Shown here in pieces: positions 20,686 through 53,500 of a stretch of DNA of 64,000 bases. A program made the translations under genes and the position numbers. Position 1 is the stretch's first letter; each line of letters begins with the position of its first letter. This DNA comes from Liolophura sinensis. Taxonomy: Eukaryota; Mollusca; Polyplacophora; Chitonida; Chitonidae. Location of the stretch: contig NC_088295.1 in assembly GCF_032854445.1 (NCBI RefSeq), positions 80,828,644-80,892,643 of the forward strand, in the 5' to 3' direction. The notes under the pieces are model-generated. The model searched no databases. It was given only the letters and a program-made list of their open reading frames with translations, and was not told the origin of the DNA.

Positions 20686-20775
20686 GCCTCTACAGCGTTG
20701 TAAGGGAGACAACCGTGTGTGTTCTAAAAGGGGTTGGTCAGTGGGGGAAAGGAGAGTTATTGGTGTGTTTCTTTT

Positions 20776-26560: not shown

Positions 26561-29500
26561 CTGAAAGTAGACAAGCAATAATGAATGACACCTGAATGCA
26601 AAACTTCAGCTAAATACATAAAGTACTGAGGTGTGAATTTGTTAATTTACGGTAATCAGTATGTACACAAAGCATCAGCAATGGAACATTTCCTTTGTTT
26701 CACCATGACATTTTAATGCAGAAAAGAGATTTGAAGGAATTTTGTAATTTATTGTGATCAGCAGACCAGCAGGGCTTCAACAATGGAACACTCCCCCCCC
26801 CCCCCCCCCGTGTTAATGTGCATTACTTGTATGCCAAACTTCAGCTTAATACTTGCAGTACTCTTTGAGATATCATTGATTTTTCAAAACACAAGACTGG
26901 GTTTTGTAATTTACACCAATGGAGGACCCCCCTTGTGTTGTTGCTGTTGTCAATTGTAAGCACAACCTGAGCTCAATACATGCAATACCTTTTGAGATAG
27001 CTTTTGAGATAGCTTTTGAGATACCTCCCATATCACAATTAATTAACATTTACTTTCACATTGGTTAAGCTGTTATTGGACACTAATGGTTGGGGTTAGA
27101 CATAAACTTTACAGAGCTATAATAAAAAGTGAAGATGTGAAGGTATATATCACAGAGATTTCAAACCGAAAAAATGGAGTTAAATAAAAGAAAAGGAGAT
27201 ACCATGTGTAGATTAATTAGTCATGTCACATCAAAAAGAATGGTATCTTTGGGTCATTTCTATGACGGTCAACTGGTGATGCCCTGTCATATGCCCTGGC
27301 AGCTTCCAAAGCCCCAACTTTAGACTTGGCGTTCCAGTGTACTTTTCTGTCCACAATCTGAACGTCCCCTCCACCTGGTCTGTGTGAACAGTTATCCAGA
27401 GAACCTATTTTAGACTTGGTTGTCCAGTCAAGTTTTTGCTTCTGAATCTTTACCGAGCTTTGTTTTGGCACATGTTTGGCATTGTCAAGAGAACCGATTT
27501 TCGACTCTGCTTTCCAATGAGTTGTTTTATCAATGATTTTCAGGTTTCCACCTCCAGCAACATGATTAGCATTGTCAAGAGATCCAACCTTTGCCTTTGA
27601 CCTCCAAGTTGGCATCTCATCATGCACTTTAAGATCCCCACCTCTTGGACTGTGGTGAATGTTTTTCAAAGATCCTACTTTTGCTCTGATGTAGTCATAT
27701 TTTTTGTTTGTAACTACGGGAGCTGCGTCAGATACTTCATAATGTACATCTTCAAAGCATTTTTCAGCCTTTGCTCCATAATAAACCTTTCCAATCTCTG
27801 GGAGAACAGAAAAGGACTTCGGTAAATAACTAGTTTTGCGGAAGTCATAGTCAATGTTGTCAAAGAGCCCACTTTAGGAAAGGCCCTCCAGTTGAGTTTC
27901 TGGTTAAATATCCACCCTTGTCCACCACCAGGGACATGAAGAGCATTATCCAGGGAGCCAATTCTGGCTTCTTGATTCCAGCCAAGGTCAATCTGGGGCA
28001 AAGGTCGGTCTCCACCACTACTGTAGTTAAAGTTGTCGAGAGAGCGAGTGTGCATGCTTGGCTTCCACATGGGTCGAATAGTCCTCATTGGGAAGTTGGT
28101 GGCCAACCTGTACTCACGCTCCAGGGCTTCCAGGTCAGATATTAATCTTTCTCGGCCCATCCTTGGGTCAGCTAACGTAACTCATGCAGCGATCATAACT
28201 GACTTCATGCACCTGACAATTCAGCCCAATCTGTCTCTGACTACTACCAGGTATTACCAATAGGTCCACACTAACACCTGTCAAGGCCTTCACACCTGAC
28301 CTGCTCTGAACATTTACAAACCTTGGCATACTTTCCCTAGCAGCCAGAACTACCAAGGAACCACACTGAGTGATCAACAAAGGAGCCTTTCACTGCAACA
28401 ACCCTAACACTTAATACTTCAACACACCTATTCAATTTGGCACTGCTACCTGATATATTAAGTACTGCCTTTCACTGATTTCGAATCACAGGCAGAGACC
28501 ACTACACAAGAACACTGTGTCATTTGTTTAAACAGTTGGTAAACCTTTTAATTTCCTGTCAATGTTACCAGTCCTAGAACATGTTATCAAACTAGGCCAC
28601 CCACGAAATGCCAATAAAGGATATGTTAAAGTCCATGTGAATAACATAGGAGGCTACAATCTAAACACTTGGTGAAAAGGTCAATAAAAACTCTATAAAT
28701 AAGCAACAGAAACATGTCCACTTTGGTTGTCAAGGGTCAGATGTAAAACAGGTTGTTATACTGAGAGTAAATGGCATTGCCACAATCAATAAGGTGCATG
28801 TGAGACATTATCAATGAAGGTTAATGCAGAAACAGCAATATATTCTTAAAGACATAGAGACTCTTTGTACACACAAATAGATATAAACCTTTGCATAAGA
28901 GAGGTCTGCATTTCAGTATCTTTGAGCTTAATTTGAATTTTTTCTCTGCAATCAAACAACTTTCAAAACTTGATCTCTCACAGCTATTAAGACCTATGTC
29001 ACAGCTAGGCTATGTGAACAGACAGCCAGCCAGACAGAACTCATGACAGAAACAGTCAAAAACATCTGTCTTACTCTACTGTACCTTCTTGTCTCCTCCC
29101 CCGGGAGTGTGATGGGCATTGTCCAACGATCCAATTTTTGGGTCAGCCTTCCAATTCACCTTTTCGTTGTAGATCTGTCAATCAATTATAATAAAGCTAT
29201 TAACTATCATGAAAAGGTAAATGGCATTCCATATCCATGCTCAATGTGGCGGACAAGTAACATACTGTATTTCACTTAAAGTTGGGTATGTAAAAATGCA
29301 CTTTCAAAAGCACATAAAGGGCTTAAAGTCATAATTTTCAGGCCAACACTTCAATCTTGCTCACAAGAAATCAATCAAACTTCATAAAAAAACATTTAAG
29401 GTGGCCTCTCAAAATGGGTGAATCAATCAGAATCAAACAAAATCTGTCACTTGAAAAATGGTAAACTTTAGATGAATTACAGTAGCTTACTTTAATCTGG

Positions 29501-32500
29501 ACTGCTTTACAACATGTGTAAACAGGATTTAGTAAATAATAGCCAAATCCAACAGACAGTCACACCAGCCACATATGTATCACACTTATGACTTTGTAAG
29601 GCTATACAACATGGTTATTCATTGCACACCATAGTAACAATTCTACTATTTCATTAATATTTCTAGCAGTCATTAGCAGGTTATTCTTACCAAAACTGAA
29701 AAAATTAAATTAAATAAATAAACATATGGTTTAAAAAAATATATTGCTACATATACAAATGTGTTAAAATCTGGTGTAGGTAATACAATTGGCCTGGGAC
29801 TGATATAACAGGTATGTTTGTCCCAGATTTGGTATATAAAACAAACTGATAGTGTACACTAAATAAAGCACTTTTAAATTATGCACACAACATTGTACCA
29901 TGATAAACTGTTCAGGTTTAACACTAAAATATAATTAAAAAAATTCCAATGCAGCAGTTTATTTCAATGTAAGATACAGCTTCTTTACAGCTCTTCTGAC
30001 TCTGGTATCAAATCTTATATGACCATTTCATTTCAGTATTATATGTATCTCAACACTTCATTAAAACATGGCATCACACTGGACCATATATATAGATGTG
30101 TACACAAGATGTCAATACATGTACATATAAACCTGTCTTAGATCTCAACTAATGACGACACCTAGAACCATAGTGTTAGATCAGTCCTAATGATAGCTCC
30201 ACTATGACATTTACATTTCACCTTATGACAGCACCTAGCACCATTGTGTTAGAGCAACCCTAATGAGAGCTCCACTATGACATTTACATTTCACCTTATG
30301 ACAGCACCTAGCACCATTGTGTTAGATCAACCCTAATTGTGTTAGATCAACCCTAATGAGAGCTTCACTATGTCATTTACATTTCACCTTATGACAGCAC
30401 CTAGCACCATAGTGTTACATCAGTCCTAATGAGAGCTTCACTATGGCATTTAAATTTCACCTTATGACAGCACCTAGCACCATTGTGTTAGATCAGTCCT
30501 AATGAGAGCTTCACTATGGCATTTAAATTTCACCTTATGACAGCACCTAGCACCATAGTGTTAGATCAGACCTAATGAGATCTCCACCATGACATTTACA
30601 TTTCACCTTATGAGAGCAGCCATAGCGTTATAGTGTTAGATCAGACCTAATGAAAGCTCCACTATGGCATTTACATTTCACCTTGTGTGAGCTACATAAA
30701 ATACATCATATCTACGAAAACCTCTAATGAGAGCTTCACAGAATCATTTACATTTCATCTCTGAAGAGCTCTACAATATCATTTAAATCCCACCTCATGA
30801 GAGCTCCACAATAGTGTTAACATTCTGTTTGATAAGAGCTCCACAACAGAATTAACATCCCACCTTATGAGAGCTCCAAAATAGCATTAACATCCCACTT
30901 CATGAGAGCTCCACCACAGTGTTAACATCCAATCTCATGAAAGCTCCACAATATCATTTACATCCCACTTCTTGAGAGCTCCACAATATCATTTACATCC
31001 CACTTCTTGAGAGTTCCACAATATCATTTAAATCCCACTTTATGAGAGCTCCACAATATCATTTACATCCCACTTCATGAGAGTTCCACAATATCATTTA
31101 AATCCCACCTTATGAGAGCTCCACAATATCATTTACATCCCACTTCATGAGAGCTCCACAATATCATTAACATCCCACTTCATGAGAGCTCCACAATATC
31201 ATTAACATCCCACTTGATGAGAGCTCCACAATACCATTAAAATCCCACCTTATGAGAGCTCCACCATAGCGTTAACATTCCGCCTCATGAGAGTTCCACA
31301 ATATCATTAACATCCCACCTTATGAGAGCTCCACAATATCATTAACATCTCACCTTATGAGAGTTCCACAACATCATTTAAATCCCACCTTATGAGAGCT
31401 CCACAATATCATTTAAATCCCACCTTATGAGAGCGCCACCATAGCGTTAACATTCCACCTCATGAGAGTTCCACAATATCATTTAAATCCCATCTTATGA
31501 GAGCTCCACAATATCATCAACATCCCACTTCACGAGAGCTACACAACAGCATTTTAATCCCACCATATGAGAGCTCCACAATTTCATTTAAATCCCATCT
31601 TATGCGAGCTCCATAATATCATCAACATCCCACTTCACGAGAGCTCCACAATATCATTTACATCCCACTTCATGAGAGCTCCACAATATCATTAACATCC
31701 CACTGTATGAGAGCTCCACAATATCATTAACATCCCACCTGATGAGAGCTCCACAATATCATTAACATCCCACCTGATGAGAGCTCCACAATATCATTAA
31801 CATCCCACCTGATGAGAGCTCCACAATATCATTAACATCCCACCTGATGAGAGCTCCATAATATCATCCACATCCCACCTGATGAGAGCTCCACAATATC
31901 ATTAACATCCCACTGTATGAGAGCTCCACAATATCATTAACATCCCAACTGATGAGAGCTCTACAATATCATTAACATCCCACCTGATGAGAGCTCCACA
32001 ATATCATTAACATCTCACTGTATGAGAGTTCCACAATATCATTAACATCCCACCTGATGAGAGCTCCACAATATCATTAACATCCCACCTGATGAGAGCT
32101 CCACAATATCATTAACATCCCACCTGATGAGAGCTCCACAATATCATTAACATCCCACCTCATGAGAACTCCACATTATTTCACAGTTTAACTGGGCAGT
32201 TAAATGTGAAGCTCGACATACATGTTGATATATTATTCTCAATCTCAACATCTCCTCCCCCAGGTTTACACTGGACATTAATTAGAAAACAACATTTGGA
32301 TACGGCTTTCCAGCCTTGGGCTTTTCACCCACAAGTCCTGAAAATATATCCTGAATGGAAAAAAATAACATCTAAGAGAATTTCAACTTTTGAAAGTAAA
32401 ATGCTAATAAAATTTGAACATTCAAAGTTGCAATATTTGAACAACCTGCTGGTGTCCAATCAGTAGTCTGTGTGATTCCTACTGAAGTTTCTGGAATTCA

Positions 32501-35500
32501 GTCAAGCCAGATTATAGGTAAGACTTTTGAGAAGCCCTTGTACATGAATTTATCAAAATTCTCACAGGTACAGTAATGCTTTCTCCAAGAAAATATGACT
32601 AGTATAAACAGACTTTACTGAGTCTACCTTTGTAGAAACCCACCCTTTTGTCTCCACAACCTGCCTTATGATTAGCATTGTCCAATGATCCACATTTAGA
32701 CTCCACTTTCAGTTTAGTTTTTGGTCATAAATCGGTTCAAGACAGTTTTACAAAATGAAGTCAGACCACAGGAGCCTTCATATGTTCTAGTGAAGTACAC
32801 TGTTACAACCATTCCATGGCAAATGTGAAGATTTAAATTTAAATTAAAATTAAATTGAATTTAAATTCATACTAAAAAGATTTCTCTTGATTACTATTCC
32901 ATGTACACACTGTTATCATTACCTTAAACAACAATGAAATGCTATTTTTATTAACTGTAAAATTATATATTTTATAACTATCATATGGCATATCAGCTTA
33001 TCCAATATTACTTGCCATGACAGAGCTGGTAAAACAGAATCAGATGTCTGTTATACATCGTGCCTACATGTAATGTGCCCTGCATATGCCATCCGTAATC
33101 TAATGTAAACTAATTCTATGTATCGACGTTACAGGCTTGAACCCTACGCATTTTATCATAATTAGGCTAATACTATAAAATACAGCTTCTGCAATGTACA
33201 TATATAACAACATTTTGAAGTATATTTATTTAGACTGGTTAAAATCACATTATAAAAATGACTGAGGTCTAAAATCAAATATCAGTTAAGATGTCACATT
33301 AAAGTAACTTCTGCACTTGGTCAATTATTTGCTTTTATTTTATTGGTGCTTTTATACATCATACTCAACAATATTTCATTTAATTAATAGCTGTGGGCTT
33401 TATGGATCTACAGAACCGGGTAGAGCTCACAGAAAACTATCTTCCTGCAAGACAATAAGAAACTTTCTGTCCTAAAGCCACATGTGAAGCTGATAGCTCT
33501 GGATTTGGGCTCATGTCCTCATTGGTCATTTTAATTGCCAATTGACTTCTACTCTAAGCCAAGAGCTGGATGGCAAGCTAGGGATCTACATAGTTAGTGT
33601 AATAATCTACATGATAGTAGTTTCTGAAATTCATTTGTTAATGCTACATACTTTTTTATGCATATATGCACTAAAAGTATGTATCCCATTAAGAAATGAA
33701 TATACATATAGGCCTATCTGCTTGTGCATTTATAGATTTTCTAAACCAAGTTTACATATAGGCCTATCTGCTTGTGCATTTATAGATTTTCTAAACCAAG
33801 TTTACATGTAGGCCTATCTGCTTGTGCATTTACAAATGTTCTAAACCAATCATGCATATTGGCCTATCTGCTTGTGCATTTATAGATTTTCTAAACCAAG
33901 TTTACATATTGGCCTATCTGCTTGTGCATTTATAGATTTTCTAAACCAAGCTTACATATAGGCCTATCTGCTTGTGCATTTATAGATTTTCTAAACCAAC
34001 CTTACATATAGGCCTATCTGCTTGTGCATTTATAGATTTTCTAAACCAATCTTACATATAGGCCTATCTGCTTGTGCATTTATAGATTTTCTAAACCAAG
34101 TTTACATGTAGGCGTGATATCAGATTATATAATAAAAGAACAAAACACAGCTAATGAGGGGTTAATTAAGATAAAAGCAGCAGAATATTACAGAGGATTG
34201 ATCGAAGTGTAGAATTATGTTTCTGATGTTAAACTTTCCATTAGTAATTATAGTATTACTTTGGGTCACTTCCTTTCCTGGAAGTATTTTAACTGCATAT
34301 AATCTAAAGCTTCAATATATGTGAGGTAACATCAATATAATTTGGAAAAGTTTAATTTGCAATTCGTGATAATAAAAGTAAACTCAACTTAAATTTAAAT
34401 CAATATAATAACAATATACCAGCTGATATTTAACTTTACAATACAAATTATAGCAGTTAACAATTTTAATTAAAAAAATGTCACCTCACCAGCAATTTTG
34501 TATCCAATAATAATGATTAAATCTTGAAAAGCCTACTATTGTGTTTTTAAAGATCAATCTACAAAGAATGTCAAAGCAGCTACAAATACATCTATTAAAG
34601 TTCCTGGAGTCTATCACACCTTTTTGTCCCCTCCCCCAGCCTTGTGGTCAGCATTGTCCAGTGACCCACACTTGGACTCCTTTGTCCACTTGAGTCTCTC
34701 ATCGTGAATCTAACCAAATGAGATAGTGAACAGTTAACATTAGTTTATCAAATGCCATTATAATTAGTTTATCAGCGACCATATCATTTGGAACAAAATT
34801 ACATTAGAAGTCTTGTGTTTGTAATGCTAAGTATAATTTCAAGACATTCAATATCACTGACAAAAACAGACAATGATCTCATCTAAGAGTATATACATTC
34901 TGGCATTTAATACTGCCCGCAAGATCCATAGTTCAGTTTTGTCCCCTTCGATGAACTGCAGCTCATGAAACTGTAGTGAATTCTAGTGTAAAAAGTCATT
35001 TTCTAGAAGCTTTCAGTTCTAATTATTTGAATCATAGAATATAAAGTTTAATTCTTCACAATGCGCACCTTGACATCTCCACCCCCAGCTTTATGATCAG
35101 CATTATCTAGAGAACCACATTTGGATTCTGCCTTCCACTTGGGTTTTTCGTCATGAATCTAACATGAGACATAAAACAAAAGCATGTGCAAACCATCACT
35201 CTATAAAGAGCATTAAACACACACAAAATTGTATTGTAGAGGTACTTGGATTTACATACTGTCAAACATGAATTATTCCTGAATGCCACTTCCATTACAT
35301 ATGCATCTGCCAGTAAGAACTAATTGTAAATAATAGGCTATCAATGCAATACTACAGCAGAAGAAAGTTTAAAGCTCATTGGTGGTGTCATGATATCTTC
35401 CAGTTTAAGCCATATACACATATTTTTACCATGTCAAAGTTAGTCAGCTTTTCAGATTTGAACAACTGTCATGACTGTTGCTAAGGAACCCACCTTTTTG

Positions 35501-38500
35501 TCTCCACCACCTGCCTTATGATTAGCATTGTCCAATGATCCACATTTAGACTCTGCTTTCCAGTTTATTTTTTGGTCATAAATCTGTTTAAGACATTTTC
35601 AGCATAGCAGAATGAAGCCATATGACATTTATATGAAAGAGTAGCTTGTAAAAATGTACATGAAAATATCATACGTACATTAGTTTATTCATACCCTTAT
35701 TTTTACTCCCACCACTTCGGCACAAATTTGTTTTCTACAGGATAGCTTTAAAGCTTCAAAATGTGATCTTTTACATCAACACTTCAGAGACTGCAATATT
35801 TTACCTCACAAACATTACATAAACTTACATAAATTTATTATTTGATGCTTAAAAAGGTTACCGTATATTTAAATGAATTCAAGATAAAATTACTTATTGG
35901 CCTGTAAAAACTGTAAACATATATTTAAACTAAGGTTATTCTTAAGTATATATGTCTCTGGTTTGTTATTGGTTATTGGCAACTAACGGTTCTAACATCA
36001 GTTAAGGAAATGAACCCTACAGCCACCCTTTGCAGAGGATCTTGTTACCTCATATGTATTGCTATACTAGATGGAGCATCTTGTACTTCACATGGATGAC
36101 AAAACCATCTTGCATTGAGGGCACTGTGACTGCACGAGAAAGATTTATCGTACTGAGGTACTTGTATTGAGGACAGCATGACTGCATGTGTAAGATGTAT
36201 TGTACAACCATCTTGTGCTGAGGTCATTCTGACTGCATGTGTGGGATGTATTGTACAACCACCTTGTATTGAGGACACTCTGACTGCATGTGTAGGGTGT
36301 ATCGTACAACCATCTTGTAATGAGGACACTCTGACTGCATGTGTAGGATGTATCGTACAACCATCTTGTATTGAGGACGCTCTTGACTGTATGTGTAGGA
36401 TGTATCGTACAACAATCTTGTATTGAGGACACCATGACTGCATGTGTAGGATGTATTGTACAACCATCTTGTATTGAGGACGCTCTGACTGCATGTGTGG
36501 GATGTATCGTACAACCATCTTGTATTGAGGACGCTCTGACTGCATGTGTAGGATGTATCGTACAACCATCTTGTATTGAGGACACTCTGACTGCACGTGT
36601 GGGATGTATCGTACAACCATCTTGTATTGAGGATGCTCTGACAGCATGTGTGGGATGTATCGTACAACCATCTTGTATTGAGGACGTTCTGACTGCATGT
36701 GTAGGATGTATTGTACAACCATCTTGTATTGAGGACGCTCTGACTGCACGTGTAGGATGTATCGTACAACCATCTTGTATTGAGGACGCTCTGACTGCAC
36801 GTGTAGGATGTATCGTACAACCATCTTGTATTGAGGACGCTCTGACTGCACGTGTAGGATGTATCGTACAACCATCTTGTATTGAGGATGCTCTGACTGC
36901 ATGTGTAGGATGTATCGTACAATCATCTTGTATTGAGGACGCTCTGACTGCATGTGTAGGATGTATCGTACAACCATCTTGTATTGAGGATGCTCTGACT
37001 GCATGTGTAGGATGTATCGTACAACCATCTTGTATTGAGGACGCTCTGACTGCATGTGTAGGATGTATCGTACAACCATCTTGTATTGAGGATGCTCTGA
37101 CTGCACGTGTAGGATGTATCGTACAACCATCTTGTATTAAGGACGCTCTGACTGCACGTGTAGGATGTATCGTACAACCATCTTGTATTGAGGACACCAT
37201 GACTGGACGTGTAGGATGTCTCGTACAACAATCTTGTACTGAGGACACTCTGACTGCATGTGTAGGATGTATTGTACAACAATCTTGTATTGAGGACACC
37301 ATGACTGCATGTGTAGGATGTATCGTACAACCACCTTGTATTGAGGACACTCTAACTGCATGTGTAGGATGTATCGTACAACCATCTTGTATTGAGGACG
37401 CTCTGACTGCATGTGTAGGGTGTATCGTACAACCACCTTGTATTGAGGACACTCTGACTGCATGTGTAGGATGTATCGTACAACCATCTTGTATTGAGGA
37501 CACCATGACTGCATGTGTAGGATGTATCGTACAACCATCTTGTATTGAGGACGCTCTGACTGCATGTGTAGGATGTATCGTACAACCATCTTGTATTGAG
37601 GACGCTCTGACTGCACGTGTAGGATGTATCGTACAACCATCTTGTATTGAGGACACTCTGACTGCATGTATAGGATGTATCGTACAACAATCTTGTATTG
37701 AGGACACTCTGACTGCATGTGTAGGATGTATCGTACAACCATCTTGTAATGAGGACACTCTGACTGCACGTGTAAGATGTATCGTACATCCACCTTGTAT
37801 TGAGGACACTCTGACTTCATGTGTAGGGTGTATCGTACAACCACCTTGTATTGAGGACACTCTGGCTGCTTGTGTAGGGTGTATCGTACAACCATCTTGT
37901 ATTGAGGACACTCTGACGGCATGTGTAGGATGTAAACTAAGGCTCAGGCTGCACTACACACACACCTAGGTGTGCACAGAGGATGTGACTGCAAAGAGGT
38001 AAAAAAACTAACATGTGTGATATGGTTAATTAGATGTGATGATGGAAGGACTTAGGGATTTAAACTTCATGATGAACAGAATTATGCATTTATGTAACAT
38101 GTCAATTTCACTCCTGTTCACAAATGTCATTGAAATATTGAAATTTCTGGTACATTATAACATTTTAAGACAAATGTTGGAAAGAAAAAGATTATGATTT
38201 TGGATGACGTTCCCTTTTTTAACATCCTTGTATGTGGTAGCATCACAACTTATTACATATCTATATATGATCATCTGATGCCTTACATTGGTGTTTTCTT
38301 CATGAAAGACAGTATATACGCATGGCAAGAAATGGGAACAAACTCTATTGTAAAAAAATATTAAATATATATACAGATTAAGAGCAAGCACACAGAAAGT
38401 CTAAAACTGAGAACAAAGTCATATGGTTAAGTGTCTACGGAGATTAATGTCCTCTATTCAAAGTGCAGTATATGTTTCTATTAGACGTGTATACAACTGA

Positions 38501-41500
38501 AAGATGTTAGAGCAACTAAGTTTCTAGAGTCTAGCTCTCACACCTTTTTGTCCCCACCCCCAGCCTTGTGGTCAGCATTGTCCAGTGACCCACACTTGGA
38601 CTCCTTTGTCCACGTCAGTTTCTGACTGTGAATCTAAAACCAGGTTTCAAAAATTCTGTTTTTCGACATACATTATAGTCAAATAGCAACATTTGTGAAA
38701 ATCAGAAAATAATAATACCCTGTTCACATGGGCAAAATTTAAACTGGATCTAACTGCACCCAGGGCATTTAATCCAGTTACAATTCACATGACAAAGATA
38801 AATGAGACCTGAAACCAGCTTAAATACTTGTTGTTAGCTGGGGCAAATAAACCGGATTAAATGTTGTTAGCTGGGGCAAATAAACCGGATTAAATGTTGT
38901 TAGCTGGGGCAAATAAACCGGATTAAATGTTGTTAGCTGGGGCAAATAAACCGGTTAAATGTTGTTAGCTGGGGCAAATAAACCGGATTAAATGCCCCAC
39001 TTTGCGTTCACACAAGCGACATAAAACTGGTTCAAAGCCACTTCTGAATTTCAACCAGCTTGTAACTTTGCCCATGGTAACGAGGTATTATTCTCCTATT
39101 TAGACATTTACTTGTTTATAATTTTGGCAAATTCAAGGACGTTTCAAACTTAAAAAAGCATTTTTCTAATTAACTTTTGCTTTACTTGAACTTAAGCTGT
39201 TTTTTTTATTTATCTGAAATTTTTTATTTCACTCTGCTAGGCATCCCCACCCTGACATCTCCGCCCCCAGCCTTGTGCTGGGCATTATCTAGAGAACCAC
39301 ATTTGGATTCTGCCTTCCATTTCGGCTTTTCATCATGGATCTGTATTGAATAAACAGAAATTCACCCACACTAAAACCACAGTGGTCTGATATGTTATTA
39401 TATACTGTCACAAATATGTCATTGTCAATAAAAATTAATGCGACTGAATTCTATATACTAACATCTTAGCTAACAAACAAGATGACAGCTAGCTCAATAG
39501 ATGTGACGATGAAAACTCTTTACGTATATGAACATGTTCCTGTCTGCAGTGAGAACATTTTCACAAGCCAGGTATGAATGCCTAAATATAATATGTATAT
39601 ATCCATTCTTCCTCCAGAACACTGTCACCTATATGTAAACCAGAAATAATTATCTACATTTTCACAGGTATTACAGACAGCTTGTATAAAAACAGATTCC
39701 ACCTTCTGGGAACATTTCAGCCAGTTTTCAGACCTTACTGAGTCGACCTTTGTAGAAACCCACCTTTTTGTCTCCACCACCTGCTTTATGATTAGCATTA
39801 TCCAATGATCCACATTTAGACTCCACTTTCCAGTTTAGTTTTTGGTCATGAATCTGTTTAAGACAGTTTTTAACATAGCAAAATTAGAATCAACTGTGGT
39901 ACTGGTAACATACATCTGCTATCAGATGAGCAAACTTATGATCAAGATATAAGATTTCTCCATATGTGGCAGTTATCAGCTTCATACACTTATCTCAGTA
40001 CAGTTTTTCTTCTTGTGTACATGATTAAACAGTTTCCAAATTCTTACATGAAGTATATATTCAAAGCAGACCCTATCAAACAAATATTACAACTGAAGTG
40101 GAAAGATTTCTCAAATCAAGCTCTTCAACACTCAGTGGCAGTTATACAAAACCACACATGCAAGCCTCTGGGATGTCTAACATCTTACGTCCATGTACAG
40201 CCTAGTGCATTCCTTCAGAAAAATAATTATTAGCCTAACTACATGTATCAACCTCACACCTTTTTATCCCCTCCCCCGGCCTTGTGGTCAGCATTATCCA
40301 GTGACCCACACTTTGATTCTTTTGTCCACTTCAGTTTTTGATCATGGATCTACAGACAAATTATAATCACTTCACAAAAAACACAATCAGTTGCAAACAT
40401 GGTTGAAATTCTCATTAAACTTGATACATGGTTCACTTTGTCATATTACCTTTATACAGTTCTCATTAAAAAACAATTAGTACATATAGGTTATGTAATT
40501 TTTTCACAGCACAAAAAAACCACAGTGTAGTTAAAATTAAGCAAAACTTTGTGTTTTTAGGAAAGTTCTTGCCTGCTAAAACTTACACTACATGTATGTG
40601 TTATATATCACTGTATAGAAATAGGTCACAAAGTTGCACAAATATGAAGATATTTAGAATAACAATCAATTCCAGTAGGAAGAAATAAACTAAACAATGT
40701 AGACATACACTGTATCTTTATGACGCTACAATCTATGAAGTTAAAGTAAACAAATAAAGAAGGTAAAATAGCAATGTGTATGAATCTCAAAAGATACACT
40801 GTCCTTGTGTTATGTAAAGAAACTATAATATTCAATTTCAAATATGAAACTGTATGTTAGTATACTGAGTACTGTTAAATGACAAACAAAGACTGCTCTA
40901 CTGTAAAACAATCTTTGTTTGGCAAACTATCAAGCTGAGAGGGTGTTATAGATGGACTGATCTCTCAAGAGTCTGTAGAGAAATTTTTAGCATTAGGAGA
41001 GAGGAAAAGTATTATACTGGTGGAGAGAAACTAGCTATAGTGATCTGAGTTTCAGACATTGGAGGGTTCAAAGAATCTAAGCAATGCTGTACGACCCTAA
41101 ATGCATCAAGTGACAGCATGTGAACCCCTTACAGCCCCTTACAGCTACGTAATCTACCAGTAACTCCCTAAATAATCTCACATTTATTTGTATTTCTTAC
41201 ATGTAAATCACAGTATGTTTAGACACACATGTATTATTATATCTTCATAAGTTACAATTATATAACAAGGCAGCGGTAACGATGCAAATCCCATCATAAT
41301 GCCACTGGTTAAATTAGCCTCATGAATTAGGCGTTAATATGTTCAGTTTTTATTGAACAGCTCATTACACTAAATAATTATGTATATACAATATGTGATC
41401 AATTTATTATATACTTTTCTTTGCTGCTGTGAGTTCAAGTCCAGCTCATGCTGGCTTCCTCTCCAGCTGTATGTGGAAAGTTCATCCTGCAACCTGCGGA

Positions 41501-44500
41501 CGGTCCCGAGTTTCCCCTGGCCTCTGCCCAGTTTCCTCCCACGAAGTGAAATATTCTTGAGTGCAGCGTAAAACACCCATCAAATAAATAAATAAATAAA
41601 TAAATACCTTTCTTTGCACATATGTTTGGTGACGCATGCATCAGTTTGTGGAATAACTGGCACAATACTGGTACATCAAAGTATAAATACATCAACATGA
41701 CCAGACTGGATTAGCTTGTTGGGGTAATTAAGGTGGGTTACATTTGATGCAGCTATAGGGCCTACAGAGGTAAGTCTAGCATTAATTCCACCAGTAGATC
41801 AGAATAAAATGCTCTTTACAACAACAGTTTATTGCATTCCACATTAAGTCATTTATATGCAGCAAATCTGCAGAATTTACAATAATATTCCTTTTGAAAG
41901 TTCATATGTTGACTGTACACAACGTTTGATTAAATCATGGGGTTAGTAGATCAGAGTAGAGTAGACCTTCATAATAAACAGGTTACCAGGAAAGGATACA
42001 AATTCTGAGCAGAAATAGCATCTTTTCGTTTTGTCTGTCTGTCCGTTAAATACTTTTTTAGTGCTCTATACAGTTCTTCAGAAGGAATGAACTAATTCTA
42101 CTATAAGTTTATTAAGACAAGATACAGGAAGAGCACCTATACACCTACTCGCTACATTTGCTAAGGAGAATAACCCCACCTTGACATCGCCTCCACCAGC
42201 CTTGTGACTGGCATTGTCCAGAGAGCCACACTTGGACTCTGCCTTCCACTTCATCTTCTCATCATGAATCTACAGTAGTGAGCCCATGATATGTCTATAG
42301 CCATCAATCTATATTTTACCCTACTTAAACCCTGCATATTGTAACCATGGCATCATCCCTGCTCAAGACCGCTGTCAATGCCCACATGTACACACATGTG
42401 ATCTGACCTGGTCACATCTGACCATCAACACAATTTTTTAGAATGGTAAAAGTGCAATAACATATGCATTTTAATACAATAATTCGGAGTAATAATGGTA
42501 ACCATATCACCAAGGATGTATCCTTTTAAATTAAGGCTAGAGCATGAATAATGGATTTAAAAAAATACTTGTAGATATAAATAAAATTCCATTTTATATA
42601 ATTATGGTGACGTTTTTTGCTTCATGACACTACTAAAGTAATCTAGTCAAGTTTTCTGGTTTCTAATTTCTTATTGTGTGGGCTTGATTTTTAAGAGACC
42701 TTTCTTTATACAACATTTTGGTACTTAAACCACATGACAAAATATTGTGTAATTTACACAGATATGAATGCATGTTCAAAGACCAGCACAATACAAATAC
42801 GGGAAAAGAACTTAGACTTTCTAAAAAAATCAAGGGTTATTATTGGTCACGCATATACACATATCTATATTTGCTTACTACTGGATTAAAAATATGAATG
42901 ATGGAGGGGAAAACGATAACTGCTGAGGACACAAAATAAGACAGAATGAAAGACATAAAGAGAAAATATTTTGAACTATATTCATTGCACAGAAATAAAC
43001 ACACCTGTCATGTCAGCGGTTTGTTGGACAAGATCAGAAATCAAAAGTATCTTTAGTAGTGGGTGGTGAAAACAATTCACTTTCGCTTCAACTTGTAGTG
43101 AAAGACATGAAGCAGGCAGAGCTTTTTGTTCTGTTATGCAAACTTGGACCATACTAATGAACCTCAACCTGACAGGTGTGTAAAGGTGTGAAAAGAACTT
43201 TCATAGTCAAAGTAATCCCTGCATGTCAAACCTTCACGTCTCCTCCGCCAGCCTTGTGTTTAGCGTTATCCAAGGATCCACATTTTGATTCCGCTTTCCA
43301 GTTCAGTTTTTGGGATTCAATCTAGACAGCATAGACAATTGTGGGAAGACATCACTGTCAAACACTCTTCATCACATCCACAAACTATCTTTAAAAAAGT
43401 CGTGTGTCCATATCAAAACTCTTAAAAACATCCATTTATGTAAAAATATGCTGCACCTTTTCTTCAGTACAGCGAGACACTTTAATATACGTACATCATT
43501 TTGTGGCTTTTTGACTAACATATTCATTGATTCACTGTACCATCACAATACAAAGATCACTGTGTGCACACTCATCAAATAGATCTCTGAGTGCACACAT
43601 TCATCACAGAGATCTCTATGTATACATACTCATCATATAGATCTGCACATACACACTCATCACAGACATCTCGGTGTGTACACACTCAACACAAAGATCT
43701 GTGTGTACACACACTCACAGAGATCTATGTTTGTACACTCACCACAAAGATCTGCATGCACACACTCATCACACAGATCTTAGTGTGTACACACTCTCTG
43801 TGTGTACTCACCACTCATGATGGACATCTCAGACATCTCGGTATACTCATTACAAAGATCTCAGTGTGTACAAACTCACCACAGAAAGTCTCCTGGGCTA
43901 TGTATCTTTGTTATATGTCAAAGAAGCTGATAATTAATATTCTCTAGGGTACAGCTGTTAGCATCAAGATTTAAGCTAGCTTGTAGATTATGAATATGGC
44001 TGACATACCTTCTTGTCTCCGCCTCCTGGCTTGTGAGTGGCATTGTCCTTTGACCCAACTTTTGACTGAGCCTTTGACTTGAAGTTCAGTTTCTGGGTTT
44101 CAATCTGATTATAATAAAATGCTTCATTAAACAATTGCAAATATGGGAACATAAATTTGAATCTCATGAATGCTATATTCATGATTAATACATATAGGCT
44201 ACTATATATGAAGCATTCATCATTTCATTCATGGAGCATCAATGAAATCTTGACTATGGTCATCATATTTAACAGCATTACAATGGCATGACTGGCAACA
44301 GAAGCAACAGAAAAGCTCCATGCAACGTTAACTGACCACAGCATGAATACGGTTTCAGCCCAATGAATGCTGAAGGAATTGTTCAGACAGAGTATTGAAA
44401 TCACACCTTCTTCTCCCCGCCACCCGCTTTATGCTGGGCGTTGTCCAATGATCCACATTTTGACTCTGCCTTCCATTTTGGTTTTGCATCATAAATCTGC

Positions 44501-47500
44501 GGAAAGCAAAAAAAGCCACATGCAAATAGCGAGGAGCATTATTCCTCCTGTATGCGTACACCCAGCCAGTAATCAAGCTTGCTCAAGTCTACATATGAAA
44601 CCATTTATGCACTTTCGAAAAAAAAACAAGCACCCATTCATGAAAAATGTTTCCTTGCAGGTATAAAACAGCATTGCAACCAAATCAAAGGTTAATATAT
44701 GACAGGCATAGGCCTTTGTTATTTACAACATGTAAGTCTACTATCCATAGAAATATACAAAAATGTTTGGTACAACGAGTCAACCTTCCACATATAACCT
44801 ACAACAACATTCTTGCATGTACGTTTGCCCAGATTTCTTGGGTATACTGTGAGTAAGAAGATTTGGATTACTTTTATCATTACCCATAATACTGGAAGGT
44901 GTAAGTCATGCTAGTACACATATATCTGTTACATACAGTCTTGATATACCTGCATATACAGACCTTCAATTAAATTAACCATTTCCAGTTAATATGTCTG
45001 ATGCATCCAAATTTAAATGATATAACTACTCCATGCAGGAAATTTTATTGATTATACGCACATATACTTTTTTTGTTACAACCTCGAATAAAGATGACCA
45101 TTTTGGTGTTGTAAAAGCTGATGTTGTGTAAGTACACGTGTAAGACCAGACACACCTGAACTTTGCAATGTATTATTGTGCCACAAAGGCAATGCTTGCG
45201 GCCGAGAGGAGTAACACATGAAGAAAAAAACTTCATCTTACATCTAGAGATTCTGTGAAAATTTTGAAATACAACATGCCAATGAACTCTTAATAGTCAA
45301 ATTTCAAAGAAAAACAAAGCTTACACAAGAGCTAAGTTTTTTATACTCAAATTTCTGTCACAGTCTACACCTATAAGTAATGCATTGTCAAAATAGAAGG
45401 AAACTTTGTTGCCACATGGTAGTGGGGTATTAACATCAATCATTATACACACAGCCTTGTATGAAAGTCAAATCATTGCTCCTACATCCCCAAACCCCTT
45501 CACACCTTTCTTTCCCCGCCCCCAGCTTTGTGATCGGCATTGTCCATGGAGCTACATTTGGACTCTGCCTTCCAGCTGAGTTTAGAGTCGTGTATCTGTA
45601 GTGTTGACAGCACATGCAAAGAAATGCATAGGTGAGTGATATACAATAATAGTTACACAGGTACACCAATGGCCGGTGTCATTTGGTTATGTATAGAGCC
45701 ATTATACACTGACAAAAACAGCACAAACCATTTACAGGCCATTCAAATGTGACATATCCTGATAGCTGCATTCAGAAATGAGTTTAATTATAATCTTCTG
45801 GTAAAATTTAACTCCATATGCAACACTTGAATGGCCTATAATGAACAACATAAAAGCTGGTAAAACTCAAATGTGAAGTTATAATATCCACTTTCAAAAG
45901 TTGTTCAATTTAGGATTTAGCACATTAAAGCTTCAGTATATAGTAATATGCAAATAAAATATTTATCAAATTCAAAGGTCCCCCTGAGACGATATATGAC
46001 CTTCCTTTTCAAACATGAAACCTAGTATTTTACGTCCCGAAGAGAACACTGGTACAACAAAAGAAATACTCAAAATGGCATTAATTTATGCCATATAGCC
46101 ATAACAAAGTTATGGTCATGTGTCTTTGCATTCATAAGCAATTACTGACAAAATATACACTGAGAGTAGCTTATCTACAAGACCTATCTTATCATCCAAC
46201 AACAACATCTGAAACGTCTTCCTCATGGAAAACAATGTGAGTGGCTACGCACAACATTCCACATCACCTGGTTTTGTTTTGGGACTCCCCCTCACTGGAG
46301 CCGGTAGACTTCATACCCCAAGAGGCTTTGACAGCACTTATAGGCTGTACGGGCCGCCTCTGGTATACCAGATCATTGTTTACCCTATTCCCGCTCAGAG
46401 CAAGTCTCCAAAAGTAGGAATTTTTGTTAAGGGCAAAAGTCTGAAAGAATTTCTAAAATCTTCATACATGTTTTTTTTCCTACCCTGATTTTCCCTTCTT
46501 TTTTTTCAATCACTTCTCCGGTTAAGACAAAACACGAGATAAAACAATGAACACACGTGTAACCTCCCCCACTGATAAGACAAGACAATTCTACAGTTTA
46601 ATTGTTTCACCACTGGAACTCAAAACTTTAACCAGAAATAAGAGGAACAAGAACACAGACAATGACAAGTGGCTTATTTCAGGCTTAGGTTCTGTTTCTG
46701 GAAAGACTTATCCTGTGTTATCTTCCGAGTGTAGATACAAGTATATATATATATACCACAAGGCTATGGACACCTGTCAGGCTAACAGAGGCCCTCCATC
46801 ACTGGAGTTGGGTGGGGTGGGATACACACACTCCTATCATACACAGCCTGTTGCGAAAACATAGACAGGCCAGAAGAAATAGCCAGAAGGGCTGCAGAGA
46901 AATTCCAGACATGTCAGTGACAGCCCACCTTAGCTACAGTCAGCCTCAAATGCCAGTATACAGCAGCTCTGTGTAAACCCTTCCAGTATCAACTCCTGAC
47001 AACATCTGACTGCTCACTTTCCTCACATCAGACAGCAATTCACCAGAGAAAATAAAGTACAATGGCAAGAAGGTAAGGCGAAAAGATATGATAAAATGAT
47101 AATAGGAATACAAACATATCTCCGTCCATATAAATAAATCTATGCACCTGGAGCTGACTTGTGACATGAATTAATACCACCACTACTGTATCAGGGATCA
47201 TGCCCAGTAAATCTCTAACCACCACCACCACTGGTTATAAACATATACACGAACTGCACAAAACATCAGAGCTGATATGAAACCATTCATTTACCACCAG
47301 TACTAGGTGTGTACACACCATACCACTGACAAACACATCACAACAGGTGACTGATCAAACAATCCACACTGTAATCTTACCTTCTTGTCTCCTCCTCCTG
47401 GCTTATGGCTAATATAATCTTTAGAACCAATCTTGGACTGAGCCTTTCCTTTAAAATCAAGCTTTTTGGATTCAATCTGGTAAAAATATGTGTCCAAGAA

Positions 47501-50500
47501 GAGTGCAAATCAGTTAATTAGAAATAATGGCAGGCTGGTGGCATGAAACAAATGGTACATACATATAGGACTCCAAATAAACACCTGTTAGGAATAAGGA
47601 GGATGCACTTTACAAGTTCATTTACAATAAATTTTCTGATATACCCATTAACTGTATAATCTGGATGCCATTATTTAAAATAGTGCACGAAATATTAATT
47701 CTCTGCCATAATTTTTATAATTAAATCATCTTACAAATTATTGCAGTCTATGGAACTGAACCACCACAAAGACAATACTTGAAGACCAAATACAAGATAC
47801 CACTTATGTTAAAATATATACAGTCATACATACATGTACACACAGTACAGCTGAGACAAACATTGAACACCTTTATATCATTATACATGTAGGTTTATGA
47901 GGTCATACTTTAACATTACCGCCTCCTGGACTGTGATTAGCATTAGCCAATGAGCCAATCCGAGATTCCACATTCCATTTTAACTTTTGAGATTCAATCT
48001 ATGTACAGGAGAAACACAAACGGGACACGCAAATTAGAAAAGCTGGCACGAACAGAGCATCAACTCTACACAGAAGAAGAAATTAAAGACAGGAGATAGA
48101 CAGAAAACAACATGTCCTAGCTGGTCTGCGATCCAATCAACTGAGATTACAGGTAGCTTAGCCAGGTGAAATCTATCAGGTGCATGTTAGCAATCAAAGG
48201 TGAATTCTCATTCTATGCACACCTAGGCATAAATGACAGAATATTGTTAAAAATATTAATCCTATCAAATAGAGCTACAAAGTTCTACAATATGCAAAAC
48301 CAAATACTCATTTTTAATTTAAATTTTACATTTCGAAACAGCAAAATATGATGACAATATTACAAGTAAGTCTATTAAGTCAACTTGTAAAATTTATACT
48401 TCTACACAGTACTTAAAAAGGTAATAATATGCAAGAAATTAGTCAATGAGGGGAAAGATCAATCCAGGAATTGAGTTTTTAAAACCTTAATTATACATGC
48501 ATACAGTGTTTGCAGTTTCAGATGTATTACATTAAATAATTAATGGAACAGATAAAATTGTCCTCAAAAGTTTCCTACATAATACTATGAATACAACTGT
48601 ACAGATATTACTAAACTACATTCTGGCTGGTTAAGATGTGTTAATGTGATATTGATAGTGTTTTAGGCGTGGTCAGTCTAACCGACACACACCTGTCCCA
48701 TCAGGTAGTTGTTAAGCCATTATTTGTCTACCTGGTTACCTTATTGGTGCCACCCCCAGGCTTATGTTTGGCATTATCTAGAGAGCCAACCCTAGAGCCT
48801 GTCTGCCAATCCAACTTTTGGGTATCGATCTGATATAGCACACACAGGTATACAACATATTTAAAACAATGAAAGCCAGCACAACATGAAAATATTCTGA
48901 AAGATATGCAACCATAACAAGAAATGCAATGATAACAAAATATACATCAAAAAAAAAATTAAATATCTTTAAATAACCAAAAAAACTGAAAAAAAAACTT
49001 TGAATAACACAAGCAGGCCCAGTTCATAAGGCAGACACAACATGTGCCTGATGTAATGTCCACAGAACATAAAGTAAAAAGCAGGAAGTATGTCAATCTG
49101 AGTCAGAAACTGTAACTGTTTCATGAAATGGGCTCTAGCTGCAACTAGGATCTGTCCTAATGGTGTTTCACCATCTGTCCAAGTAAAAAGAAGAGTGCAA
49201 TATGTTCACACACCAGAGCTATCCAGTTCCCCTCAGAACTACCACATGCTCAGTCAGAGGGAGAACAATGAACTCACACAGGGGAGCACCTACACCAGGC
49301 AGGGAAGGTGGAGGGTCAAATGACAAGGTATTTCGTGGAGAACAGATGCTAGACAATTTTTGTTCAACAAATTTTCTTTTATATATGATAAATGTAGAAA
49401 ATAAATCGCAAAAAAAGATGACATTTGATTGCACATTCATGATTATAAATGTACACATCAGTTAATGAAACTGTATTCCCCTGCTAAAAATAACAAATGA
49501 CAATTATCAGGTGGAAAATGTTTATCTCAAACAGATTCTTTTCTCTCATTCAATAAACAACATAAACAACCTAATAATTTTGTATTCTGTAGGAGGTTCT
49601 GACAATACCTTTACCACGTCTGTTCACCACGTCTGTTCACCAACAAACACCCATGGGGCTTATCCCTTGTCTCATCCCCACCCTCCCAGCTCAACTTAAA
49701 TGGACACTGTTGACATGGACTGAGACTGAAGGCTAAGGGCTGCACACAGGGCCACAGAGTAACAAGTAAGCAGGTGAGCATCATTGTCCATACCTTCTTC
49801 TCTCCACCCCCTGGTTTGTGACTAGCATTATCTAATGACCCAATTCTTGATGCAGCCTTCCACTCGAGTTTTGCACTCTGGATCTAATTAAATAATTCCT
49901 CATGAACAAATCTTCTGGGTCTAATTAAATAATAAGACTCATGAACGAAATCTGCAGGATCTACTGAAAAGCTTACCCTCTATGTACAAAACTAAGAAAA
50001 GACGATTATCTTTACAAAATTACATAAGATATTTTTCATTATAACTTTTGGAAAGGGAACTGACCAAAGGACCTGCACGTATGGCTTTATGACAAAAACT
50101 TGATACAATTTATCCTTAACATTTGCCATCATCATTAACACACAGTAACTAGGCGAAATAAATGGTATTCTTGGTTCCTGTAAGGAATTGGTGCCACAAA
50201 TCCTTCTTGAATGTGACAACTGCTGGCAGAACACAGCTTAGCTTGGAAAATTCAGCCAGCAACAATTAGCACACAAAATTCTATGAATACAGACAAACTG
50301 ACAGACAAAAAACAACAGCCATTCAGCCAGTAAAATATGATGTCCCTGTTCACTTTGCCTAACGCTGTAGACAGCTAAAGTGCATACTCCTGATTTTCCC
50401 ATGAAAATTAGGATTTTATCTGTAGGTGACTCACCTTTAGTTGTTCAGTAATACTTTAGCATGTATATATGGGAAGTTGTATTATGCCTACAGGTGAAAT

Positions 50501-53500
50501 AGGGTTCCAGACCATCAATACCCCTATGCCAACCCTGACCTTAACTTAGCTTGATTAGGCTACATGTTTAGTTAACAGCTCATTCATTAACATAAACAAC
50601 ACTTGGCAACAAATTAACCTACCTTCTTGTCTCCTCCACCGGGTGAATGTTTGGCATTATCCAAAGAGCCTATCCTTGACTTTGTTCCATCATAGCTCTG
50701 TCGTTTACTTTCAATTTTAACCGTACCTCCTCCTGCAAATATCAAAAGATTAATTTTAAACCATACAAAGCCAAATGCACCATTCAAATTTATCAAAATG
50801 CTACTAATCTACTTCTGATACATTTCAAGTATAGTATTTAAAAATTCTTGCAACCTGAATTAATGGTATGGAAAAGTTCTAACATCACAAGTTGATTTTA
50901 TCACATTGATCATCCATATCTCTGCAGAGATGGTTTTAACATATACAGTTAAATTTACATCAAACCATAAACTATGTGGCCAATCAGATCACTCAGACAC
51001 ACAGTAAGCGTATAGCTGTCTACAAAGTTTCCTGAGAGCAAGTTTACTACATCTAACTTCATCACTTAAGCAGTCCATTCTGACACCAGCCAGACGGGGA
51101 CCAGGTACTGTTACCTGCGCCTGCCAGGTACGTGAAAGGAACCCACCTGGTTTGTGATTCATGTTGTCCTTGGATCCAATCTTACTGGAGGCCTTAACAT
51201 CTGTCTTCTGATTAAAAACTTTCACCTGTATTAGTGAAAATGTACTAGGTAAGAAAAACTTACAATGCCGTACACAGCAACAATACATCCACTGTAATAA
51301 ATCTCTGTAGACAGATTAATTCAATAATGGTAAAAAATGCCTGTGCAAGCTAAGTTACATTCATACACATAGACTTGTCTGATGATCATCATTAGAAAAC
51401 AAAGATTACAAGATGTGCCTTCATATCTTCTGAAACTGGTGCATGTTTTACTACCTTCATATTTATTTTTAGCCCTTAATTTGAGTGTACAGTTTAACTA
51501 CCATTACATCGCTACATTATCTTACATTTCCTCCTCCTGGAGTATGGGTGGCATTATCCAATGACCCCACCCTAGACTTGATAGGACCCTTTCCCCCTGG
51601 GCGAGGAGATGGAGTTTCTGTGGGATGACAAAGAAAACACAATAAGTGCATGTCTGATGACACTTTAGAGACACCATTATTTCTTGAACATAAAAAGTAT
51701 TGGCAGTAATAACCATGAAAGATTAAATTCTTTTTCCCGGCAAATCTACAAATCAATGGATGCAGCCATTTTTTGAAGCTGGCTGATTTCTTATTTCTTC
51801 CAAGGTACCAGAATTAAAGGTCGTGTTAAAATTGTCAAAAACTGTCTAATCTTGGTTTGCCAAAGCCATTTTCAAGCCAAGCCTTTCAGGAAACACAAAA
51901 TGAAAGAATACAAAAAAATGTATTTCAATGAAGTCAAATGTAAGAACAACGAATGTCTCCATCAGACACTGGTCATTAATACCTAGATGTATATGTCCCC
52001 AAACATTACCTGCTGATCCCGTGCTGCCCCTCTTCTTAAGGTCTGCACTCTGTCAACAATAACAACAGCCAATGACCATACACTTACAAAATATACAGTC
52101 CACAGTATCTTGACTGACATGCTTTCTATGATGTCATACCACACGTGAGTTTGTTAGTTATGAAAAACCTGCACAGTGATTTTTTTAAAGAATATGTATC
52201 TTATAAAACAGCTCTTAGTTCAAAAAAATTAAAGGAGCAATAAATTCTGTTGAGTCAAACTAATAACAAAACAAAATCAAATATATGTAGTAGATCACAT
52301 TTAAGATCCCTTAGGTGTGTGTGGTGAGAGAGTGGGGTAACGAAATTAAAGGCAGAACTCCACCATCAATGGTGAATTAGTGAAATTTTTACTAAAAAGG
52401 TCAGTAAAACTTTGGAAACACCACCACTTATTAAAATCAAGCTTATCAAAACACTATTTATTACATCTATATGTTTACATTATTTTATATTAACAATATT
52501 CATTTCATCGCCATGGCCAGTATTTGACAAAAATACTGCTTGAGTGGGATAAAACCCATATTATTCATTCATTCACAAAAGGACCATTCTTAACATACTG
52601 TCAATGTGGATGGGGGTTGGGGGGAGGTGGGTGGGTAACTACAGTTTAGACGCAGCATATATGCCTGCTACAGCATATCAGACAAAGTATGGACCTTTGC
52701 AATGTCTGACCTTGGTCTAATTCCATGAGACAACCCTGTCCAGACTGGCGGGTGGTATACATCAGTGGAACACCATGCCTACATGGTCAGGATGCCCCGA
52801 AGACGACCAAAGCCAATCCTCATCAGGATTTACTGGCAAGCTTCCAGTATTGGTCACCTCTGAATCGATTGATCAGTCATGTTCTGGAGGAGCTATTCTA
52901 TGTGTACAAAGTATCATGCATCTCCCCACATTTATGTAGGACAAATGTCCCAGACCTATTTCTCAGAAGATCTTGCGTCTATAGATAGGCATATGCATCT
53001 GCATGCATGCAATTACCGGGTATGGGCATACATGCAACTAGTCTGGCCACTGGTCTATTTTCAGTCCAGCCAGTTTTATATTAGATGTATATCAGCTCAA
53101 ATATTGATCAATGTTTGCCCTCACTTAACCTTGGCATGGTCATGTCTGTGCACGGATGTTGGTTCCATATTGCCCAGTAATAAAAACAGCCCTGTGATGG
53201 AGAGCCAGAGACACTCCCTGCAGCCATAGAGTAATGACATGCAATCAGACAGCTTAATGAGGAGAGCCATATTAGGGTGCCAGGACTTTCACCATGGTCA
53301 CTTTTGATCCGGATATCATAGCCTTGAGAAACAATCCATATTCAGAAAATGTATTTACTAATTCTCTATTCAAGCCCTTAGGCCATATCTTTGAAACTGA
53401 TATCTGCATTACAAGATCATTGTGACATTAAAACATTGACATATCATTATTTAACAATCAAACACAGCCATTATAAAAGTCATCATGTCACAATGCAATC

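What the first reader, a model, noticed from the sequence alone, without database searches (positions are those of the whole stretch)
29085..51617. A tau/MAP-family gene expanded to 20 tubulin-binding repeats
I can read 20 intact repeats with the core [KR]-[IVC]-G-S-[LK]-D-N-x-x-H-x-[PA]-G-G-G, each on its own exon with valid GT/AG sites and consistent phases. Vertebrate tau, MAP2 and MAP4 have three to five. The product could bind an unusually long stretch of a microtubule protofilament, or crosslink several microtubules.
Basis: partly seen in the sequence, partly recalled or inferred. Interest (0 to 1): 0.85.

Follow-up and report, generated by a model that had tools for sequence, protein, structure and literature searches.

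The report
Molluscan tau gene with 20-28 repeats
A mollusc's only detected tau-type gene carries 20 microtubule-binding repeats on separate small exons plus about eight more, some worn, in its last exon, far more than the three to five of vertebrate tau and more than the ten reported for an oyster; whether one protein uses them all is not known.

Summary
On the minus strand, 20 exons (51617-29085) each encode one tau/MAP2/MAP4 tubulin-binding repeat, with AG/GT sites and compatible phases, joined in frame to an acidic N-terminal exon (ATG 56472) and two small linker exons. The array is longer than reported: a last exon (about 28181-27226) holds about eight more repeats, five of them Pfam-positive, and ends in tau-like R' sequence, with one apparent 1-nt frame break near 27862. 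Two decayed repeat exons lie at 32.7 and 32.3 kb. It is the only PF00418 locus detected in the genome (26 of 26 matches), which is molluscan (eight haemocyanin units). The repeats are old and constrained: among 11 core modules mean pN is 0.13, pS 0.79 (55 of 55 pairs). A period-3 similarity pattern (best of 280 groupings) points to growth by three-exon cassettes. Seventeen modules are phase-symmetric, 15 of exactly 30 residues. Repeat expansion in molluscs is already published (7-10; ten in oyster; PMC8985376), so this is an extreme variant of a known kind. Repeats per mRNA, tubulin binding and span are untested.

The parts
54927..56472 (-). Coding exon e2: ATG (56472) with an ACCATGG context, acidic projection domain with five NPF motifs, then a basic Ser/Pro-rich region; donor phase 1
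   Evidence: residues 1-431 pI 4.05, net charge -77; 432-560 (spliced product) pI 12.0
53521..53561 (-). Exon e3 (41 nt), Ser-rich linker
   Evidence: AG/GT and phases 1 to 0 fit
52010..52049 (-). Exon e4 (40 nt), basic linker
   Evidence: AG/GT and phases 0 to 1 fit
51526..51617 (-). R1 exon (92 nt), ends GGGN| phase 0
51147..51225 (-). R2 exon (79 nt), ends PG| phase 1 inside the PGGG
50623..50732 (-). R3 exon (110 nt), starts inside PGGG (phase 1), ends GGGDKK| phase 0
49794..49883 (-). R4 module (90 nt, phase 0-0)
48740..48829 (-). R5 module (90 nt, phase 0-0)
47909..47998 (-). R6 module (90 nt, phase 0-0)
47381..47476 (-). R7 module (96 nt, phase 0-0), closest to human tau R4 (66%)
45506..45595 (-). 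R8 module (90 nt), Cys type, KCSS variant
44407..44496 (-). R9 module (90 nt), Cys type
44009..44104 (-). R10 module (96 nt, phase 0-0)
43232..43321 (-). R11 module (90 nt), cassette position 1
42180..42269 (-). R12 module (90 nt), cassette position 2
40260..40349 (-). R13 module (90 nt), cassette position 3
39764..39853 (-). R14 module (90 nt), cassette position 1
39251..39340 (-). R15 module (90 nt), cassette position 2
38544..38633 (-). R16 module (90 nt), cassette position 3
35494..35583 (-). R17 module (90 nt), cassette position 1
35069..35158 (-). R18 module (90 nt), cassette position 2
34620..34709 (-). R19 module (90 nt), cassette position 3
32641..32749 (-). Decayed copy of the R14-type exon: acceptor AG lost, one-base deletion, substitutions
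   Evidence: alignment; part of it still over the Pfam cut-off at 34.6 bits
32247..32327 (-). Decayed copy of the R15/R18-type exon: 2-nt insertion, core motif lost
29085..29174 (-). R20 module (90 nt, phase 0-0)
27226..28181 (-). Last exon region: about 8 further repeats in two open frames (28181-27717 and 27873-27229) with an apparent one-base frame break near 27862, then a tau-like R' pseudo-repeat and TGA at 27228-27226. Acceptor uncertain: in-phase candidates before 27992 (first frame) and before 27795 (second frame)

Best explanation
This is the one detected tau/MAP2/MAP4-type gene of a mollusc. Its repeat region has grown from an ancestral arrangement (R1 | R2 | R3 | module ... R') by duplication of a phase-0 exon that begins at the old R4/R' junction, and later duplications copied three neighbouring exons at a time. 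SHOWN: exon model, phases, number and classes of repeats, purifying selection on the repeats, the period-3 similarity pattern, decayed copies, no second locus found. INFERRED: the way it grew; and that the product is a long disordered protein with an acidic projection arm, a basic Ser/Pro-rich clamp and a string of 20 (up to about 28) repeats. Each repeat would lie along the outer ridge of a protofilament on one tubulin dimer, as tau repeats do, so the full string could cover roughly 160-220 nm. KxGS serines would allow MARK/Par-1-type kinases to loosen it repeat by repeat. Because 17 modules are phase-symmetric, exon skipping can change the length in steps of one tubulin dimer without breaking the frame. 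I expect mRNAs with clearly more than five repeats, probably several isoforms rather than one.
For: Exon model: 22/22 AG, 23/23 GT, compatible phases, 1150 residues open. PF00418: 26 matches (41 candidates scored) in the genome, all here: 20 exons, 5 in the last exon, 1 decayed exon. PDB: all 48 sequences hit in each search are tau, E 3e-42 for a query of R1-R4 and E 6e-24 for the 3' end, whose alignment runs into R'. Selection: among 11 core modules mean pN 0.128 against pS 0.788, pN<pS in 55 of 55 pairs; 105 of 105 for all 15 ninety-nt modules (pairs not independent); third codon positions differ four times as often as second. Length: 15 of 17 modules exactly 90 nt, while both decayed copies carry indels. 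Introns: of 129 self-matches only six are 100 bp or longer and start outside the tandem arrays, all covering repeat exons, the longest 142 bp, so the array is no recent assembly duplication. Cassette: the grouping R11/14/17, R12/15/18, R13/16/19 is best of 280, also on third positions. One repeat per tubulin dimer and about 31 residues per repeat are from PMC13224075 and PMC10873104 (passages).
Against: There is no transcript or protein evidence at all. The last exon holds an apparent one-base frame break; if real, a transcript using the acceptor before 27992 would lose the last repeats and the tau-like end (an in-phase acceptor before 27795 could bypass it). Donor pairing with U1 is uneven: R6 -1.8, R1 -4.3, R11 -4.9, five modules -5.2 kcal/mol, which do not stand out from GT sites in the gene at large (mean -1.75, 5th percentile -5.9), against -8.7 to -10.9 for R2, R3, R7, R12, R14, R15 and R17; constitutive inclusion of all modules is not assured. 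R8 has lost the KxGS glycine. Two modules have already decayed.
Confidence: 0.72

Rival explanations
1. Splicing reservoir: the array is a menu. Each mRNA uses only a few modules, so the protein has ordinary tau length and the extra exons provide variants.
For: 17 consecutive phase-symmetric modules; uneven donor strength; human tau exon 10, one repeat, is alternatively spliced (PMC8909800, passages).
Against: The 11 Cys-type modules are 79% identical on average, which gives little choice for a menu; an oyster protein entry already has ten repeats (PMC8985376).
Confidence: 0.3
2. Decaying array: most modules are no longer used and the gene is losing its 3' part.
For: Two decayed exons, a frame break in the last exon, weak last-exon units, large tandem arrays in introns.
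Against: All 20 exon modules keep frame and splice dinucleotides, and core residues with few exceptions, although synonymous sites between most modules are saturated.
Confidence: 0.06
3. Assembly artefact: repeats multiplied by misassembly or by tandem placement of two haplotypes.
For: Large tandem repeats nearby can confuse assemblers.
Against: Introns share little beyond short exon-centred stretches and most modules differ at saturated synonymous sites; the 3' exon region has a single match in the assembly.
Confidence: 0.02

Closest known systems
Molluscan MAPs with 7-10 repeats (Gottschalk and Hefti 2022, PMC8985376; ten in Crassostrea gigas)
   Same: PF00418 repeats expanded in a mollusc; that paper finds invertebrate MAPs apart from vertebrate MAP2, MAP4 and tau
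   Different: 20 exon-coded repeats plus about 8 in the last exon; that paper counts domains in proteome entries, and the parts I saw describe no exon structure, phases or cassette growth
Vertebrate tau (MAPT), MAP2, MAP4
   Same: Acidic N-terminal arm, basic region, repeats of about 31 residues with KxGS and PGGG, R' end. Splits at GGGN|V, PG|GG (phase 1) and GGGDKK|I match human exon 10/11, 11/12 and 12/13 boundaries as I recall them (exon 12 ending in KK fits the W-tau passage)
   Different: Three to five repeats; canonical tau has no Trp (PMC8909800, passage) against a Trp at the same place in 15 of 15 ninety-nt modules (Phe in R7 and R10); VQIINK/VQIVYK hexapeptides not found here
Antarctic rockcod tau with 7 repeats (Suendermann et al. 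2016, PMC4815063)
   Same: Tandem copies of a Cys-containing repeat; passages also mention other fishes with 5 and 6
   Different: Far fewer copies, vertebrate lineage, so presumably an independent event

Membership tests
tau/MAP2/MAP4 family | Tandem tubulin-binding repeats (PF00418) | tested here: met
   26 matches over the curated cut-off at this locus; E 2e-43 for one frame of the last exon
tau/MAP2/MAP4 family | Acidic projection domain followed by a basic region ahead of the repeats | tested here: met
   pI 4.05, net -77, then pI 12.0; Pfam finds no named domain in e2
tau/MAP2/MAP4 family | Repeat-region exon boundaries at GGGx|V, PG|GG and GGGxKK|I | tested here: inconclusive
   Positions and phases found here; the human boundaries are recalled, supported only in part by passages in PMC2483273 and PMC8909800
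tau/MAP2/MAP4 family | R' pseudo-repeat and C-terminal tail after the last repeat | tested here: inconclusive
   R' met: the PDB alignment runs to human tau residue 385. Tail not shown: the last 28 residues of the 133-residue query are not aligned
tau/MAP2/MAP4 family | Microtubule binding | not testable with these tools
   needs protein
Vertebrate tau, MAP2 or MAP4 as individual orthologue groups | Phylogenetic placement in one of the three vertebrate groups | not tested
   PMC8985376 places invertebrate MAPs outside the three; no full-length tree was made here

The most novel reading that the evidence does not exclude
A 'ruler' tau: a single polypeptide with 20-28 repeats, most in strict 30-residue register, each such module with an invariant Trp and mostly Ala in place of the PGGG proline, growing and shrinking by three-dimer cassettes, and lacking the amyloid hexapeptides of tau. 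That would be a natural separation of extreme microtubule avidity from tau aggregation.
Probability: 0.35. Interest if true: 0.7.

Novelty: new variant of a known kind. Interest (0 to 1): 0.5.

Why it matters
Vertebrate tau has three to five repeats. A natural array of 20 or more constrained repeats gives a ready test of how repeat number sets grip, length of track covered and aggregation. It also suggests how such an array grows: by a phase-symmetric exon, then by a three-exon cassette, with decayed copies left behind. The core modules replace the PGGG proline (position of human P301, a dementia mutation site; passage in PMC2483273) with Ala and lack the VQIINK/VQIVYK motifs, which makes them useful for asking what separates binding from fibril formation.

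Tried and rejected
Chance motif matches: rejected (controls). Assembly duplication: rejected for the exons. A second tau-type locus or a retrocopy that would record spliced mRNA: none found, though such searches can miss weak matches. Splicing round the frame break: among phase-0 acceptors of the second frame the best by pyrimidine count (14 of 17) is before 27795; R20 could join there in frame to the last repeats and R', skipping Lb, Lc and the break. It is neither shown nor excluded. A separate short gene or alternative start at an ATG near 28160: not excluded. Naming the species: not possible with these tools; only 'mollusc' is supported. Structure prediction was not run, because the protein is expected to be disordered. 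Other molluscs could not be checked by sequence, since no other animal genome is held. Literature searches on repeat number and molluscs led me to open two papers that report more than five repeats, PMC8985376 and PMC4815063; the other listed papers were seen as listings only, apart from those cited.
Full report
What was checked. The finding claims 20 tau-type repeats on separate exons between 29085 and 51617. I rebuilt the gene by hand on the minus strand and tested frames and splice sites by script. The model has an ATG at 56472 in an ACCATGG context, a large first coding exon (56472-54927), two small exons (53561-53521, 52049-52010) and 20 repeat exons R1-R20 from 51617 to 29085. All 22 acceptors are AG, all 23 donors are GT, every phase fits, and the 1150-residue product has no stop.

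It is not chance. A repeat HMM gives 33-62 bits for the 20 exons; in 20 first-order Markov controls of window length the best score was 0.1 bits. The HMM was built from 21 window repeats, so the independent evidence is Pfam PF00418: 41 candidates were scored in the 609-Mb genome and 26 matched, all over the curated cut-off and all in this window. Twenty fall in R1-R20, five in the last exon and one in a decayed exon (positions compared by subtraction). The tool warns that such counts are lower bounds and that weak matches can be missed.

The array is longer than described. Downstream of R20 an exon region (28181-27226) carries repeats in a row without introns. Its two open frames score PF00418 E 1e-12 and 2e-43. 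I count eight units: five clear (Lb, Le, Lf, Lg, Lh), one cut by the frame break (Lc) and two very degenerate ones placed by eye (La, Ld; 19-23% and 4-13% identical to the human tau repeats). They are followed by an R' pseudo-repeat, and the PDB alignment to human tau runs to residue 385. After KVGSL the frame changes by one base near 27862, with the expected DN following in the other frame. Whether this is an assembly error, an allele or real damage cannot be told here. The acceptor of this exon is also uncertain. An in-phase AG before 27992 fits the module boundary, but repeat-like sequence continues upstream of it. Another in-phase AG before 27795, with 14 of 17 pyrimidines, would let R20 join the last repeats beyond the break.

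What organism. The same genome encodes eight haemocyanin beta-sandwich units in tandem on one contig, and one unit matches haemocyanins in the PDB far ahead of tyrosinases (that these haemocyanins and PF14830 are molluscan is my knowledge).

Age and constraint. Among the 11 Cys-type modules of 90 nt, mean pN is 0.128 and pS 0.788, with pN below pS in 55 of 55 pairs; for all 15 ninety-nt modules it is 105 of 105. These pairs are not independent, and two pairs are recent (R16/R19 pS 0.11, R14/R17 pS 0.18). Third codon positions differ in 51.6% of comparisons, first in 14.1% and second in 12.1%. In six close pairs examined without gaps, intron flanks away from the splice sites are 20-35% identical, near chance, while exons are 80-93%. 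Of 129 self-matches in the gene, six were 100 bp or longer and began outside five tandem arrays; all six cover repeat exons. So the modules are mostly old, separately maintained coding exons.

How it grew. In R11-R19 the grouping by every third module is the best of 280 possible groupings, on all sites and on third positions alone. R14/R17 (93%), R16/R19 (92%) and R15/R18 (87%), with R13/R19 (87%) and R13/R16 (86%), are the closest pairs. Two decayed exons at 32.7 and 32.3 kb match R14 and R15 best, which fits a further copy of the same cassette. The module boundaries (I... to ...GGGDKK, phase 0) coincide with the end of R3, and by my recollection with the human exon 12/13 junction. I take the module to be derived there. 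In the protein tree R2, R7 and R10 fall in one group with human R2, R3 and R4; the tree was midpoint-rooted, was printed without support values, and units of 30 residues give weak trees.

Residues. In the 15 ninety-nt modules among R4-R20, Ile1, Trp8, Ser16, Asn19, Ala20, His22 and Gly25-27 are invariant; position 24 is Ala in 11 and Pro in 4; position 14 is Cys in 11. R7 and R10 have Phe where the others have Trp. K-x-[GS]-S occurs in 20 of 28 units by the pattern used, including the KCSS of R8, so strict KxGS is 19; most of the rest have Arg for Lys. Ser262 of tau, in KxGS, is a MARK site and contacts alpha-tubulin Glu434 in the cryo-EM model (PMC13224075, passages). The pattern VQI..K is absent from the 1150-residue product; in the last exon VQIVDR occurs once. 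R2 keeps a related VKVFNQ. Canonical tau has no Trp (PMC8909800, passage).

Mechanism. Tau repeats lie extended along the protofilament ridge, one repeat of about 31 residues per tubulin dimer (PMC10873104 and PMC13224075, passages). By analogy 20 repeats could span about 160 nm and 28 about 220 nm (8 nm per dimer; inference). The constant 30-residue length over old modules, with indels in the two decayed copies, is what a lattice-matched string would show. But two modules have 32 residues and a test against neutral three-base changes was not made, so this is suggestive only. Phase symmetry allows isoforms of many lengths. Donor pairing with U1 varies from -1.8 to -10.9 kcal/mol, which leaves room for regulated skipping. 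Crosslinking of several microtubules is possible but has no specific support.

Known or new. PMC8985376 (seen: part 1 of 4 of the text, passages and section 11) reports that some molluscs have 7-10 repeats and the Pacific oyster one protein with ten; it also found that three octopus entries are pieces of one gene. PMC4815063 (abstract and passages) reports seven in an Antarctic fish. So the kind is known and the present case is an extreme variant. My searches listed no title or abstract reporting 20 or more repeats, but the library lacks most subscription journals and the listings were capped.

Results against. No RNA evidence; one frame break; two decayed modules; three of the eight last-exon units weak or cut; several donors no stronger than background GT sites. 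Interest is set at 0.5: a striking extreme with a readable growth history, but foreshadowed in print and untested in function.

Noticed in passing
window 54927-56472 (-): The N-terminal arm has five NPF motifs (residues 126, 173, 213, 233, 258), the type bound by EH-domain endocytic proteins (recalled), hinting at a link between microtubules and vesicle traffic.
   Followed up: partly
window 30727-32179, 33703-34113, 36103-37934: Large intronic tandem arrays (35 bp x 41, 50 bp x 8, 51 bp x 36) within the repeat-exon region, possibly unstable.
   Followed up: no
window 3509-11468 (+): Weak somatomedin-B match (under the Pfam cut-off) and a clear secretin-type 7TM domain (E 1e-18), possibly one adhesion-type receptor gene on the other strand.
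   Followed up: partly
window 20536-20826 (-): Possible start of a cwf18/CCDC12-like splicing factor gene (E 6e-5, just under the Pfam cut-off).
   Followed up: no
window near 28160 (-): An ATG in good context opens the first last-exon frame; could be an alternative start for a short repeat-only isoform.
   Followed up: no
G000 contig C8, 37880506-37891931 (+): Tandem eight-unit haemocyanin gene, each beta-sandwich match in an open frame of 429-529 residues.
   Followed up: partly
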